Shown piece after piece: positions 49,273 to 54,296 of a DNA stretch of 64,000 bases. A program made the position numbers and the translations under genes. Within the stretch, counting starts at the first letter, position 1. Each line of letters starts with the position of its first letter. Origin of the DNA: Rhodohalobacter sp. SW132 (GTDB taxonomy: Bacteria; Bacteroidota; Rhodothermia; Balneolales; Balneolaceae); contig NZ_QUOK01000009.1 in NCBI RefSeq assembly GCF_003390325.1, forward strand, positions 62,001 to 126,000. The letters are read 5' to 3'. The notes under the pieces were generated by a model. That model worked only from the letters and a program-made list of their open reading frames with translations, had not been told where the DNA came from and ran no database searches.

Positions 49273-49421
49273 ACTATCGGTGTTGCGTGCATCTGCTCCA
49301 TTTATATTCTGTGCACGATCCTGTATTTTTTATTCAGAATCAATTTTGTTTTTCACTGCTCCACATAATGTTGCGCGCTTTTGTACCTTTCATGCGTAAA
49401 TTGAACCGAACGAAATTCCCC

Positions 49422-50204
49422 ATGAGTTTAACCTACACAAATTACCTGAATGTTGATAAGCTACTGAAACTGCAGGAGCCGAAATCGGAACCTGAAGAGC
49501 ATGATGAGATGCTTTTTATCATCATCCATCAGAGCTACGAACTCTGGTTCAAACAAATACTGCACGAATTCGACAAACTCAGGACCGATCTTGAAAATGG
49601 CAATACCTGGGCGTCTGCCAAAACGATGAGGCGGATTTTAACAATTCTCAAAACCATGGTCTCCCAGATCGATATCCTGGAAACCATGACGCCGCTGGAA
49701 TTTAACAGCTTTCGCGGGTTTTTGCAGCAGGCGAGCGGGTTTCAGTCGGTTCAGTTTCGTGAGATGGAGATCATCTGCGGAATGCGTTCGGAGCATATCA
49801 TTAAAGTTCACGCCGATCAGCCGGAACTGCAGCAGCAGCTCATCGACAGGGAAAAAGAGTCTACTCTTTGGGAGAGTTTCTGCAAATACCTCCAAAAGAT
49901 GGGGCATCCGATAAAGGATCCCAAACGCGTTAATGAGCAGGGACTTGTGCATAATTCGTCTGAGGAGAACCAGAAAACGCTCGTGGAGATTATGAACAAT
50001 GATCCCGAAGCGGCACTGCTCTGCGAACTTTTTGTTGATTATGATGAAGGGCTGCAGGAGTGGCGATACCGGCATGTAAAAATGGTTGAGCGCACGATTG
50101 GGACAAAAAAAGGGACCGGCGGATCGGATGGTGCTAAATACCTCCGGCAAACGTTGAACAATCCTATCTTTCCGGATCTTTGGGCAATACGGACACAGTT
50201 TTGA
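49422..50204 (+). CDS. kynA: Tryptophan 2,3-dioxygenase
   Basis: This 260-residue haem enzyme opens the indole ring of L-tryptophan to give N-formylkynurenine, the first step of the kynurenine pathway. Diagnostic features are LTYTNYLNVDKLLKLQ at the start and FIIIHQSYELWFKQ, which carries the distal His of the family. Others are LEFNSFRGFLQQASGFQSVQFREME and WRYRHVKMVERTIGTKKGTGGSDGAKYL, with the proximal haem-ligand His in YRH. The ATG at 49422 gives the usual family start. The same frame stays open upstream to 49224, including an ATG at 49392, but those residues look non-native. No other kynurenine-pathway gene is in the window. Confidence 0.94.
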   Translation: MSLTYTNYLNVDKLLKLQEPKSEPEEHDEMLFIIIHQSYELWFKQILHEFDKLRTDLENGNTWASAKTMRRILTILKTMVSQIDILETMTPLEFNSFRGFLQQASGFQSVQFREMEIICGMRSEHIIKVHADQPELQQQLIDREKESTLWESFCKYLQKMGHPIKDPKRVNEQGLVHNSSEENQKTLVEIMNNDPEAALLCELFVDYDEGLQEWRYRHVKMVERTIGTKKGTGGSDGAKYLRQTLNNPIFPDLWAIRTQF

Positions 50205-50827: not shown

Positions 50828-51547
50828 CTAAACAAATGCCCTCACCGCTAACCCTGTGAGCAGTGCCAGAAGCGCTGAAAGCAGTGTCCCGATCAATACA
50901 TATTCCGCAAACGTCCTGTTTTCGAACTCTTTGTAGCGCACTACTCCTTTTGCCGTTAAAATAAACCCGATCGCCGCATACTGCCCGGCAATCGTAAACA
51001 GAAATATAAAAATCCGCTCCAGCATCCCGATCACACGGCCGGTATTGTATTCCCGATCCGTTACCGTTGAGTTGATCTCCCCAATCGGGTCCAGTTTCAG
51101 AAGCTTTAATATATGGCGGAGAAGTGTGTTCATTTCGTTCATCACCAGGAGAATCCCAAACAGTAACATCATCACCGATAATGCCATTTCTACAGCGCCC
51201 GGGCCGGATTCATACAGAAAATCCACAATTGTTCGATCCATTTCTGCATTCAGCAAGGGACTAAACATCAACCCTGTCAACCCAATATACAACAGCAAAC
51301 CGAACAGACGATTTCTGTAGATTTTCTCCCCATTACGCTCCAGGTAAATGGTGGCAATCGGGAGCAGCAGAAGAGTGATCAGCAGTAGAACCCAGGTCAG
51401 GTTCACTTCCATCAGCAGCAGGACAATCAGCGGTATGGCCGCCATTTTCAGGATCGTACCGCTGGTAGCACCGTCATCTTCAAACGTCAGCCGCAAACGG
51501 GAAATCAGCACCAGGTTCAGCGTAATAAAAAAGAGCAGCAGATTCAT
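50828..51547 (-). CDS. Membrane protein partnered with the SatD-like gene (resembles the C-terminal part of DUF3307 proteins)
   Basis: This 239-residue protein has about seven hydrophobic segments, beginning LLLFFITLNLVLIS. The C-terminal third (VIGMLERIFIFLFTIAGQYAAIGFILTAKGVVRYKEF, then AEYVLIGTLLSALLALL) resembles, from memory, the end of DUF3307 membrane proteins. The usual DUF3307 N-terminal segment is not seen, so this may be a divergent or rearranged relative. The gene overlaps the end of the SatD-like gene by four bases (stop and start share ATGA), a sign of translational coupling. DUF3307 and SatD proteins are often neighbours, which supports a common but unknown task. Confidence 0.7.
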   Translation of the reverse strand: MNLLLFFITLNLVLISRLRLTFEDDGATSGTILKMAAIPLIVLLLMEVNLTWVLLLITLLLLPIATIYLERNGEKIYRNRLFGLLLYIGLTGLMFSPLLNAEMDRTIVDFLYESGPGAVEMALSVMMLLFGILLVMNEMNTLLRHILKLLKLDPIGEINSTVTDREYNTGRVIGMLERIFIFLFTIAGQYAAIGFILTAKGVVRYKEFENRTFAEYVLIGTLLSALLALLTGLAVRAFV

Positions 51548-52191
51548 GATGATTCCAGGTTTTCCAGGTACCGATTCATCAACACCGTGATATTGCCGGT
51601 CATTTCCATGATGATATCGATGCTTCCGTCTTCCCGATTTTTATAGACGGCTGTTTCTGAGATATCAAGCTCTGCCGCGATTTTCTTCACCGGCAGACCA
51701 CTGTTTAATTTATTCACTATCATGTATCGCGTTTTTTTCCACTTTTTTATTCCATCTGACATCAGCCAGAGCGAACTGTTTGCCAGGGCAAGCTCGGAGC
51801 CCTCTTCGGCTCCCTCGGCGTCTACTCCAAACAGGTACCCGGTTTTTTTCAGCTTTTCGATTCTTTCTCTCGCCGCATAAAACGCCGGGCCATCCATTCC
51901 GATCGCCTGTTTTGGGTTTATCGGGGTGACAATCGTGCCGATCGAAATCGCAAAACGAACCGAAACCGGGTGCAGCTCGGCGAGAATCCGCCAAATATCT
52001 TTCCAAATACCTGAAGTATCGCCATACACCGCCTGGAATTCATCTCCCAGCGTGATGGTGTAGGGAGAGGCAAGAGACTCCGATTCTTTGCTGATCGTTT
52101 CCAGCAATCGCTCCAGCTTCTCCTGCAGTTCTTTCCGGCCGGAAGAGCTCAGCTTTCTCGACTCTACAATATCACCTATAATCACAATCAT
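51544..52191 (-). CDS. SatD-family protein with C-terminal helix-turn-helix
   Basis: This gene product has about 215 residues from the ATG at 52191 (MIVIIGDIVESRKL). An in-frame TTG at 52230 would add 13 polar residues and is less likely. The N-terminal domain has features reminiscent of nucleotidyl-cyclase folds (IIGDIVESR, YTITLGDEFQAVYGD, RFAISIGTI). The C-terminal part contains a predicted helix-turn-helix (GLPVKKIAAELDISETAVYKNRE). SatD was named from a streptococcal acid-tolerance locus; its biochemical activity is not established to my knowledge. The gene is translationally coupled to the membrane gene downstream. Three palindromes at 52233-52307 lie 42-116 bases upstream of the ATG, so autoregulation is plausible. 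Confidence 0.8.
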   Translation of the reverse strand: MIVIIGDIVESRKLSSSGRKELQEKLERLLETISKESESLASPYTITLGDEFQAVYGDTSGIWKDIWRILAELHPVSVRFAISIGTIVTPINPKQAIGMDGPAFYAARERIEKLKKTGYLFGVDAEGAEEGSELALANSSLWLMSDGIKKWKKTRYMIVNKLNSGLPVKKIAAELDISETAVYKNREDGSIDIIMEMTGNITVLMNRYLENLESS

Positions 52192-52230: not shown

Positions 52231-52314
52231 AATTCAACTGAATCAGTTTAATTTTTGAATTTCAACCAAAATAGTTGAAAAAATACAATTAAACCAATAT
52301 GGTTGAATTTAAAC
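52231..52314 (-). promoter_or_regulatory. Three evenly spaced palindromic operator-like sites upstream of the SatD-like gene
   Basis: Three related palindromes of the form TTCAAC-N7-GTTGAA lie at 52233-52251 (TTCAACTGAATCAGTTTAA), 52261-52279 (TTCAACCAAAATAGTTGAA) and 52289-52307 (TTAAACCAATATGGTTGAA). Their centres, 52242, 52270 and 52298, are exactly 28 bp apart. The core arms are conserved while the spacers differ, as expected for protein-binding sites. They lie in the promoter region of the SatD-like gene, whose product has a helix-turn-helix, so that protein is the first candidate to bind them. Confidence 0.7.
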
Positions 52315-52334: not shown

Positions 52335-52366
52335 AAAAAGCCGGGGATTCAGAACACCGGCTTTTC
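52335..52366 (-). terminator. Rho-independent terminator of acs
   Basis: On the minus strand AAAAGCCGG (52365-52357) and CCGGCTTTT (52344-52336) form a 9-bp stem with a 12-base loop, ending in CTTTTT. It lies 32 bases after the acs stop and separates it from the SatD-like operon. Confidence 0.82.
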
Positions 52367-52397: not shown

Positions 52398-54296
52398 TTA
52401 GTAGGCTTTACCATTTTTGATATCGTCAACCACGGACGGATCCAGAAGTGTGGATGTGTCCCCCAGGTTTTCGAGATCGTTTGCCGCAACTTTCCTGAGA
52501 ATTCGCCTCATGATTTTCCCTGATCGGGTTTTCGGCAAACCGGCAACAACCTGAATTTTATCCGGCTTGGCAATCGGGCCGATGATTTTGGTTACCAGAT
52601 CATGAATCTCTTTTTTAAACGCTTCCGGATTTTCGGGCTCTTTCTCGCAGATCATAAAGGCGTAGACACCCTGCCCTTTCACATCATGCGGATACCCAAC
52701 AATGGCCGTTTCTACGATGTTTTTATGCTCATCGATCGCGTTTTCAATTTCTGCCGTTCCCAGCCTGTGTCCGGAAACGTTGAGCACATCATCCACACGG
52801 CCGGTAATTCTGTAGTAGCCGTCATCGTCGCGCCGGCAGCCATCACCCGTGAAATAGTATCCTTTATAAGCGCTCATGTACGTTTCCAGGTATCGGTCGT
52901 GATCTCCCCATACCGTGCGCGCGATACCGGGCCACGGATGTTTAATACAAAGATTTCCATTCACGCCGTTGCCGTCAATCTCTTTGCCTTCCTCATCCAT
53001 TAGCACAGGTGTGATTCCGGGCAGGGGAAGTGTTGCGAAACCCGGTTTGGTTGGAGTGATGCCTGCCAGCGGGGAGATCATAATACCTCCCGTTTCGGTT
53101 TGCCACCAGGTATCCACAATCGGGCAATTTCCGCCGCCGATGTGATCGTTATACCAGTTCCAGGCCTCTTCATTGATCGGTTCACCCACGCTGCCAAGTA
53201 CTTTCAGCGAGCTGAGATCGTATTTCTTCACATAGTCGATATCGTAGCTCATCAACGCGCGAATGGCGGTTGGTGCCGTATAAAAATGAGTGACTTTATA
53301 TTTTTCAACAACTTCCCACAGACGGCCGGCATCGGGATAGGTTGGCGTTCCTTCAAAAATAATCCCGGTGGCGCCGGTAAACAGCGGTCCATACATAATA
53401 TAGGAGTGGCCCGTGATCCAGCCCGCATCAGCCGTACACCAGTAGATATCCTCTTCTTCAACCTGGAACACGTTCCGGAACGTGTAGCTGGTGTAGACCA
53501 TATATCCGCCGCAGGTGTGCAAAACGCCTTTTGGCTTGCCGGTGGAGCCGGATGTATAGAGAATAAAAAGCGGGTCTTCCGCATCCATTTCAACCGCCGT
53601 ATGTTTTTTAGAGGCGTTTCGGATGAGCATATGCCACCATTCGTCACGCCCTTCCACCCAGTCGATATCGCGGTTGGTACGCTGACAAACAATTACACTT
53701 TTAACATTCGGGCAGCTTTCAAGGGCTTCATCAGAAATATCTTTCAGCGGAACGTGCTTATCGCCACGGCGAAGACCGTCGTTGGTGATCAGCATTTTGG
53801 CATCGCAATCTTGAATCCGCTCAGAAAGTGCCTGGGCTGAAAATCCTGCAAATACGATAGAATGCACCGCACCAATACGCGCACAGGCAAGTGCCGCAAT
53901 AATCAGTTCCGGCGTCATTGCCATATAAATGCACACCCGATCGCCTTTTTCTACTCCTTTACTTTCCAGGACATTAGCGAAGCGGCAGACATCCTCATGA
54001 AGCTGACGGTAGGTTATGGTTCGCCGAAAACTGTCGGGGTGATTCGGCTCAAAAATGAACGCCGTTTTGTTACCAATGGTATTCAGATGGCGATCAAGCG
54101 CATTTTCGGTGATATTGAGCTTTCCGCCTTCAAACCATTTAATATCCCCTTTTTCAAATCCGCCGGAATGAACTTTGTCCCAGCTCTTTCTCCAGTAAAA
54201 CGTCCCGGCTTCGTGCTCCCAGAACTTCAGGCGATCCTTTTCACTCTGTTTATACGTTTCTTTGTACTCATCAAAAGATTTAATATTCAGCCACAT
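52398..54296 (-). CDS. acs: Acetyl-CoA synthetase (AMP-forming)
   Basis: This 632-residue cytoplasmic adenylate-forming ligase makes acetyl-CoA from acetate, ATP and CoA. Motifs are the N-terminal Acs-specific region (WFEGGKLNITENALDRHL), the P-loop LFILYTSGSTGKPKGVLHT, and WCTADAGWITGHSYIMYGPL. Also seen are VDTWWQTETGG, GDGCRRDDDGYYRITGRVDDVLNVSGHRLGTAEIE and the C-terminal PKTRSGKIMRR, whose Lys is the conserved acetylation site that regulates this family. Length is normal. It is a single-gene unit with a clear terminator at 52335-52366. Confidence 0.95.
   Translation of the reverse strand: MWLNIKSFDEYKETYKQSEKDRLKFWEHEAGTFYWRKSWDKVHSGGFEKGDIKWFEGGKLNITENALDRHLNTIGNKTAFIFEPNHPDSFRRTITYRQLHEDVCRFANVLESKGVEKGDRVCIYMAMTPELIIAALACARIGAVHSIVFAGFSAQALSERIQDCDAKMLITNDGLRRGDKHVPLKDISDEALESCPNVKSVIVCQRTNRDIDWVEGRDEWWHMLIRNASKKHTAVEMDAEDPLFILYTSGSTGKPKGVLHTCGGYMVYTSYTFRNVFQVEEEDIYWCTADAGWITGHSYIMYGPLFTGATGIIFEGTPTYPDAGRLWEVVEKYKVTHFYTAPTAIRALMSYDIDYVKKYDLSSLKVLGSVGEPINEEAWNWYNDHIGGGNCPIVDTWWQTETGGIMISPLAGITPTKPGFATLPLPGITPVLMDEEGKEIDGNGVNGNLCIKHPWPGIARTVWGDHDRYLETYMSAYKGYYFTGDGCRRDDDGYYRITGRVDDVLNVSGHRLGTAEIENAIDEHKNIVETAIVGYPHDVKGQGVYAFMICEKEPENPEAFKKEIHDLVTKIIGPIAKPDKIQVVAGLPKTRSGKIMRRILRKVAANDLENLGDTSTLLDPSVVDDIKNGKAY

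What the first reader, a model, noticed from the sequence alone, without database searches (positions are those of the whole stretch)
52231..52314. Three palindromic sites with exactly 28-bp spacing upstream of a SatD-like gene
The three TTCAAC-N7-GTTGAA type sites have centres at 52242, 52270 and 52298. Arms are conserved but spacers are not, as for protein-binding sites. SatD proteins lack a known mechanism; a cyclase-like fold plus a helix-turn-helix and a coupled membrane partner hints at a ligand-sensing autoregulated pair.
Basis: seen in the sequence. Interest (0 to 1): 0.65.

Follow-up and report, generated by a model that had tools for sequence, protein, structure and literature searches.

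The report
SatD's own triple DNA-binding array
A poorly understood bacterial and archaeal protein family, SatD, very probably controls its own gene by docking on a row of usually three mirror-image DNA sites set 28 or 29 letters apart, which gives the family a first testable job.

Summary
Three 19-bp palindromes (TTMAAC-N7-GTTKAA) lie exactly 28 bp apart just upstream of satD (ATG at 52191). They are the only three exact matches in the 5.08-Mb genome.

The pattern is a property of the SatD family. Of 154 non-redundant satD genes, 121 have an upstream palindrome pair that beats all 60 shuffles, against 4 and 1 of 154 control windows. The best spacing, free to be 22-35, is 28 or 29 in 135 of 154. 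Four plasmid genes searched afterwards, two of them haloarchaeal, all have it.

The arm sequence differs between SatD clades and tracks SatD's predicted recognition helix (60 pairs; partial rho 0.49, p 0.0002, given the N-domain). The same genome's second satD has its own three different sites.

SatD is modelled as a cyclase/GGDEF-like palm plus HTH. It is usually followed, often overlapping by 4 bp, by a membrane protein gene.

Best reading: SatD dimers bind the array side by side and repress satD and the membrane partner gene. Binding by SatD is strongly supported. Repression, ligand and partner function are inferred or unknown.

The parts
52233..52251 (.). operator 1 (nearest satD), TTCAACTGAATCAGTTTAA, centre 52242
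   Evidence: one of only three exact matches in the genome
52261..52279 (.). operator 2, TTCAACCAAAATAGTTGAA, centre 52270
52289..52307 (.). operator 3, TTAAACCAATATGGTTGAA, centre 52298
51544..52191 (-). satD, 215 aa, SatD family PF16264; ATG at 52191
   Evidence: Pfam SatD E 2.4e-30; AlphaFold model pLDDT 97
51808..52191 (-). codes for the N-terminal cyclase/GGDEF-like palm domain (residues 1-128), with D7, D50 (GDEFQ) and R108 invariant in 61 sequences
51628..51657 (-). codes for the predicted DNA recognition helix, residues 179-188 (ETAVYKNRED)
   Evidence: helix 179-188 in the model; columns covary with operator sequence
50828..51547 (-). partner: 239-aa polytopic membrane protein, start overlaps the satD stop by 4 bp; no Pfam family passes its cut-off
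50876..51040 (-). codes for the conserved C-terminal core of the partner (residues 170-224, ER...K...R...EY.L.G...S)
   Evidence: invariant G170, G174, E177, R178, K200, R204, E215, L218, G220, S224 in 36 sequences; motif in 121 of 141 complete downstream ORFs
52336..52365 (-). GC-rich inverted repeat followed by a T run on the - strand, likely terminator of the upstream acs gene, separating acs from satD

Best explanation
The three palindromes are operators for SatD itself. SatD is a one-component regulator: an N-terminal palm domain of the class III cyclase/GGDEF fold followed by a helix-turn-helix. A SatD dimer binds each palindrome, and neighbouring dimers sit 28 or 29 bp apart (about 2.7 helical turns), close enough to touch, so that the array fills cooperatively. 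Because the array occupies the promoter space in front of satD, filling it most likely represses satD and the overlapping membrane-protein gene, a private negative feedback loop. SHOWN here by computation: the array, its family-wide conservation, its fixed spacing, its uniqueness in the genomes searched, the match between recognition helix and operator sequence, the fold prediction, and the coupled membrane gene. INFERRED: that SatD is the protein that binds (strong), that it binds as dimers and adjacent dimers contact each other (from the palindromes and the constant spacing), that the outcome is repression (from position). UNKNOWN: whether the palm domain binds or makes a nucleotide, what signal releases SatD, and what the membrane partner does.
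For: Array beats all 60 shuffles in 121 of 154 nr satD upstreams and spacing is 28/29 in 135 of 154, against 4 and 1 of 154 control windows of the same loci with spacing 28/29 in 23 and 14 of 154. Not used to set up the test: 4 of 4 plasmid satD genes (2 haloarchaeal, 1 Agrobacterium, 1 Sphingomonas), 0 of 500 shuffles each, spacing 29, 29, 28, 28. Operator sequence tracks recognition-helix identity: 60 approximately independent pairs, rho 0.73; partial 0.49 given the N-domain (p 0.0002), 0.58 given the rest of the C-terminal part; the reverse partials are 0.15 (p 0.15) and 0.015 (p 0.45). In a scan of 190 columns, 6 of the 10 helix columns are among the top 14. Two satD genes in one genome carry two different triplets, each unique in 5.08 Mb. 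In 7 other genomes where the double-site patterns were found (1 of 6, 6 of 12), they occur only upstream of satD (positions compared). HTH by Pfam; palm fold by AlphaFold/Foldseek.
Against: No binding data. 16 of 154 loci show no array by the score (more than 3 of 60 shuffles as good) and 17 are borderline; some of these may lie inside longer operons or have a single site. Repression rests on position alone: the sigma-70 scan finds no satD promoter in the window (1 hit, 0.9 expected, on the strand opposite to satD). The family-wide promoter scan has no control. The covariation test uses palindromes chosen by program, with the dyad phase wrong in some loci.
Confidence: 0.85

Rival explanations
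1. Another transcription factor, encoded elsewhere, binds the array and controls satD.
For: Nothing here shows SatD touching DNA; many regulators use 19-20-bp palindromes (general knowledge).
Against: Operator sequence follows SatD's own recognition helix across phyla; in 6 of 8 genomes with two satD genes inspected, the two carry clearly different arrays, which would need two foreign regulators per genome; the sites are private to satD; the array is there in Bacteria and Archaea.
Confidence: 0.06
2. SatD binds the array but activates, or switches between activation and repression, rather than simply repressing.
For: Position alone does not fix the sign; arrays with a distal and a proximal site can do both; distance from the last dyad to the start of the SatD domain varies (median 41, quartiles 29 and 54.5 bp).
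Against: In Streptococcus moroccensis (L188) TATAAT lies inside the spacer of all three sites, so bound protein would cover a -10 box; TATAAT or TAnnTTTG fall near dyads in the loci that have them (33 and 34 of 127, no control).
Confidence: 0.2
3. The palindromes act as nucleic-acid structures (RNA hairpins, terminators or recombination sites), not as protein sites.
For: They are inverted repeats in an intergenic region.
Against: Short arms with a 7-nt loop and changing sequence but constant 28/29-bp spacing; no Rfam match; no terminator-like site listed; archaeal and bacterial arrays alike; recognition-helix covariation would be unexplained.
Confidence: 0.02
4. Chance or low-complexity artefact of AT-rich intergenic DNA.
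For: The region is AT-rich; loose matches are common.
Against: 0 of 500 shuffles; the AT-richest windows of the same loci give 4 of 154.
Confidence: 0.01

Closest known systems
SatD family (Pfam PF16264), named after the Streptococcus mutans secretion-and-acid-tolerance gene
   Same: Member by Pfam cut-off; relatives across phyla are likewise followed by a membrane protein gene.
   Different: No operator or DNA-binding role was found in the papers seen: only annotation-level mentions, one reporting satD as essential yet accessory in S. pyogenes (PMC11323703, passages).
Class III nucleotide cyclases / GGDEF domains / minimal CRISPR polymerase (palm fold)
   Same: Fold of residues 1-128; Foldseek best hit adenylyl cyclase 4wp9 E 4e-4; VIA-align Z 8.5-10 to cyclases, GGDEF, GTP cyclohydrolase III and mCpol; D7 and D50 invariant; TLGDEFQAV aligns with the cyclase TIGD motif, weakly.
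   Different: Fused to an HTH; catalytic activity untested; sequence similarity only marginal.
PucR/CdaR-type regulators (GGDEF-like domain plus HTH, family name recalled; Rv2242, BAD_0249)
   Same: A cyclase/GGDEF-like fold combined with an HTH in one regulator (recalled); both proteins appear among the Foldseek hits (prob 0.57-0.93).
Phage lambda right operator (three adjacent operators; recalled, not tested)
   Same: Three near-palindromes in a row, read by a self-encoded HTH protein, with cooperative binding.
   Different: SatD spacing is 28/29 bp and uniform; no opposing Cro-like protein is known here; found in bacterial genomes and on haloarchaeal plasmids.

Membership tests
SatD family (PF16264) | score above the curated Pfam cut-off over most of the protein | tested here: met
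   106.2 bits against 29, residues 2-194
HTH transcription regulator | tri-helical HTH with a recognition helix | tested here: met
   Pfam HTH_23 E 2.5e-4, below that family's own cut-off, HTH_23 in 31 of 61 members at E up to 0.5; helices 153-163, 168-175, 179-188 in a pLDDT 97 model
HTH transcription regulator | sequence-specific binding to the operator | not testable with these tools
   only indirect: helix-operator covariation
Class III nucleotide cyclase | palm (cyclase homology) fold | tested here: met
   (shared with GGDEF and other palm proteins; not specific to cyclases)
Class III nucleotide cyclase | two metal-binding aspartates | tested here: inconclusive
   D7 and D50 invariant in 61 and in 31 sequences; the hhalign register covers D50 only and is weak, E 0.035
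Class III nucleotide cyclase | Pfam Guanylate_cyc match | tested here: inconclusive
   not among the 25 families listed of 100 for 61 members at E up to 0.5; a missing weak match is not proof
Class III nucleotide cyclase | cyclase activity | not testable with these tools
   needs an assay
PucR/CdaR-type regulator | PucR-type C-terminal HTH | tested here: inconclusive
   not among the listed Pfam matches

The most novel reading that the evidence does not exclude
SatD and its membrane partner form a self-contained nucleotide-sensing module found in Bacteria and Archaea: the palm domain binds (or makes) a nucleotide signal, the signal state sets whether SatD polymerises along its private 28/29-bp operator ladder, and uncontrolled expression of the membrane partner is harmful. 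This would explain why satD is reported as essential where present in S. pyogenes although many strains lack it, and would make it a regulator-guard of a membrane effector rather than an acid-tolerance gene. It would resemble in logic, not in membership, palm-domain plus membrane-effector systems such as Panoptes (mCpol; its membrane effector is recalled).
Probability: 0.15. Interest if true: 0.85.

Novelty: new variant of a known kind. Interest (0 to 1): 0.72.

Why it matters
SatD is an annotated family for which no mechanism was found in the papers searched, present across Bacteria and on haloarchaeal plasmids. A private operator array, readable by eye upstream of most satD genes, gives it a concrete, cheap-to-test function (autoregulation by DNA binding), a predicted specificity code in the recognition helix, and a clear candidate target (the coupled membrane protein, whose conserved C-terminal core is outside the Pfam family DUF3307). 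It also offers an approach to why satD is reported essential in S. pyogenes while being present in only 178 of 249 complete genomes (PMC11323703, passages).

Tried and rejected
Motif-based scan of relatives with TTMAAC-N7-GTTKAA found only the closest orthologues and would have missed the family-wide pattern; it was replaced by a motif-free score. A first three-site statistic without a shared-arm model was poor and the script stopped with an error. Single loose sites in the window are at chance level. The one-mismatch excess in the own genome (116 forward against 67 control matches) is in part a dispersed repeat (TTTAATCATAAGTGGTTTAATTCCCCGAC...) unrelated to SatD; a near-match to site 1 at G000:C2:61390 is a lone site. 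Chance, terminator or RNA structure: rejected. Phage SatD: no match in 50,697 phage records. Defence-system library: no SatD match; a 2TM effector model hits the partner only at E 0.0077, not pursued. Partner fold: no PDB match at E 0.001 or better. Two pattern searches were mis-specified in gap or arm length and gave uninformative zeros; the corrected one is (6 of 12 genomes with one place each, all upstream of satD; 6 of 12 without a match, since the pattern is strict). The exact double-site pattern in 6 other genomes hit 1 of 6, for the same reason. Literature: SatD/DUF3307/PF16264 searches are limited to the open-access library; most SatD hits mean other things.

Rows dropped before counts: of 180 distinct satD proteins (100, 80), 177 with a domain over 150 aa were aligned and 154 kept after the 90% identity and upstream-length filters. 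The covariation set is 121 of those 154, chosen for a clear array, so it cannot speak for loci without arrays. The dyad phase chosen by program is visibly the mid-way one in some loci (for example L028, L033, L105), so its counts of 2, 3 or 4 sites (34, 97, 23 of 154) are approximate. The 60 pairs come from repeated cherry-picking of sister tips on one tree and are only approximately independent. The Y-R versus W-K reading was counted partly by script and partly by eye. The structure alignment A2 held 60 of the 79 usable SatD proteins, and A3 held 35 of the 53 usable partner proteins, plus the window's own in each.

Full report
WHAT IS IN THE SEQUENCE. Three palindromes lie at 52233-52251, 52261-52279 and 52289-52307, centres exactly 28 bp apart. 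They sit between the acs gene (52398-54296, - strand, followed by a likely terminator at 52336-52365 read by eye) and satD (51544-52191, - strand). Allowing the one variable arm base (TTMAAC-N7-GTTKAA), they are the only exact matches in the 5.08-Mb genome. A motif-free palindrome-pair score of the 180 bp upstream of satD exceeds all 500 dinucleotide-preserving shuffles (20.0; largest shuffle 13.8).

A FAMILY-WIDE RULE. SatD genes were collected from relatives (43 of 97 genomes), from the phylum by Pfam model (79 of 394 genomes; regions fetched) and from named genomes (80 loci), in all 180 distinct proteins, 154 after filtering. For each, the 180 bp upstream were scored for two palindromes sharing one arm sequence, with the spacing left free between 22 and 35 bp. 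121 of 154 beat all 60 shuffles and 138 of 154 are matched by at most 3. The best spacing was 28 in 53, 29 in 82, anything else in 19 of 154. Control windows from the same loci gave 4 of 154 (the AT-richest window) and 1 of 154 (a random window), with spacings spread broadly (28 or 29 in 23 and 14 of 154). Split by source, 66 of 82 (genome search) and 55 of 72 (named genomes) beat all shuffles. The named set covers Bacteroidota, KSB1, Aminicenantes, Gammaproteobacteria, Spirochaetes, Chloroflexi, Clostridia and others by their record titles. Four plasmid satD genes found later were an independent test: two haloarchaeal plasmids, Agrobacterium pAt and a Sphingomonas plasmid (the four read of the seven plasmid hits, three more being near-identical Agrobacterium records). 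All four have arrays, spacing 29, 29, 28, 28, with 0 of 500 shuffles as good. Archaeal promoters are built differently (established knowledge), so the spacing is more easily explained by the protein than by the promoter.

WHO READS THE SITES. Arm sequences differ by SatD clade: TTMAAC in the window clade, TTTCA or TTGCA in a second clade, TATCG, TATCTGC, TATATGC or TATAAG in a third, and others. Across 121 loci with clear arrays, operator similarity correlates with recognition-helix similarity beyond N-domain similarity (partial r 0.33; there N-domain given helix is also 0.31, as expected when relatedness is not removed). In a scan of 190 alignment columns, 6 of the 10 columns of the predicted helix 179-188 are among the 14 that track the operator best (two of the three top columns, M99 and P43, are not in the helix and may be clade markers). 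On 60 approximately independent pairs the partial rank correlation of operator with helix given the N-domain is 0.49 (p 0.0002), while N-domain given helix (0.15, p 0.15) and the rest of the C-terminal part given helix (0.015, p 0.45) add nothing clear. In the second clade the pair at positions 183-184 goes with one base of the site: W-K with TTTCA-type sites and Y-R with TTGCA-type sites in most loci, with mixed sites in L027, L050, L055 and L199 (partly read by eye). The window's genome holds a second SatD with its own triplet TATCGT-N8-ACGATA, spacing 29, again the only three exact matches in the genome. In 6 of 8 genomes with two satD genes inspected, the two carry clearly different arrays. 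These results make SatD itself by far the likeliest reader.

WHAT SATD IS. AlphaFold2 on 61 aligned sequences gives pLDDT 97, pTM 0.92. Residues 1-128 form a palm of the class III cyclase/GGDEF type (Foldseek 4wp9 E 4e-4; VIA-align Z 10.4 to GTP cyclohydrolase III, about 9 to cyclases, GGDEF domains and mCpol, with 105-130 residues aligned in most of these rows). D7, S11, T45, T47-Q53 (TLGDEFQ), G85, G101 and R108 are invariant in 61 sequences, consistent with a kept metal/nucleotide site, though the direct profile comparison with cyclases is weak. Helices 153-163, 168-175 and 179-188 form the HTH. No solved relative of the whole protein was found by sequence, only weak HTH matches.

THE PARTNER. 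Downstream of satD, often overlapping its stop by 4 bp, lies a membrane protein gene: 136 of 154 loci have a downstream ORF that belongs to one similarity cluster containing membrane proteins (membrane proteins can be chained by composition, so this is an upper view), and a shared C-terminal motif (ER...EY.L.G...S, with K and R between) occurs in 121 of 141 complete downstream ORFs. Two of the five partners tested carry DUF3307 in their N-terminal half; the window's partner, one from its clade and a short one of about 106 aa do not. The window partner is modelled with pLDDT 93 and has no PDB match at E 0.001 or better. Its function is unknown.

MECHANISM. Most likely SatD dimers occupy the palindromes, touch their neighbours at 28/29 bp, and shut the satD-partner operon: private negative feedback, tunable by whatever the palm domain binds. 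Repression is inferred from position (for example TATAAT lies within the spacer of all three sites of L188; the broader promoter scan has no control). Against it: 16 of 154 loci lack a detectable array and 17 are borderline, and no wet evidence exists.

LITERATURE. In the open-access library, only one listed paper holds the phrase 'SatD family' and none was listed with PF16264; three papers join SatD with acid tolerance and S. mutans. Passages of PMC11323703 say satD was found essential in emm1, emm28 and emm49 S. pyogenes strains yet is present in 178 of 249 complete genomes. PMC10326533 (passages) gives only an annotation in Fusobacterium nucleatum. DUF3307 appears in one paper on a jumbo phage (search listing). 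PMC4886424 (outline and passages) concerns another cyclase-like family (DUF2652) and does not mention SatD. No paper seen describes SatD operators or DNA binding; most subscription papers and all preprints were not searchable.

Noticed in passing
G000:C5:67391-68039 (locus L105): Second SatD paralogue of the same genome with its own exact triplet TATCGT-N8-ACGATA at 29-bp spacing and a DUF3307-type membrane partner.
   Followed up: yes
L217-L223 (unnamed own genome, several contigs): Dispersed repeat beginning TTTAATCATAAGTGGTTTAATTCCCCGAC (one copy with a base changed), seen in seven places fetched, often followed by runs of C and G in inverted order.
   Followed up: partly
window 50828-51547 and partners of other loci: The conserved C-terminal core of the SatD partner (ER...K...R...EY.L.G...S) is not covered by Pfam DUF3307, which matches only the N-terminal half in some clades.
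   Followed up: partly
L212, L213 (haloarchaeal plasmids): SatD-DUF3307 gene pairs with 4-bp overlap and four GTTCG...CGAAC palindromes upstream (two pairs, each at 29 bp; second pair read by eye).
   Followed up: yes
PMC11323703 (S. pyogenes; paper, not a locus): satD reported essential in three emm types but present in 178 of 249 genomes; an accessory yet essential gene could be an antitoxin or a repressor of something harmful.
   Followed up: no
window 49365-50204: Tryptophan 2,3-dioxygenase gene near the satD operon on the opposite strand; no sign that it is connected.
   Followed up: no
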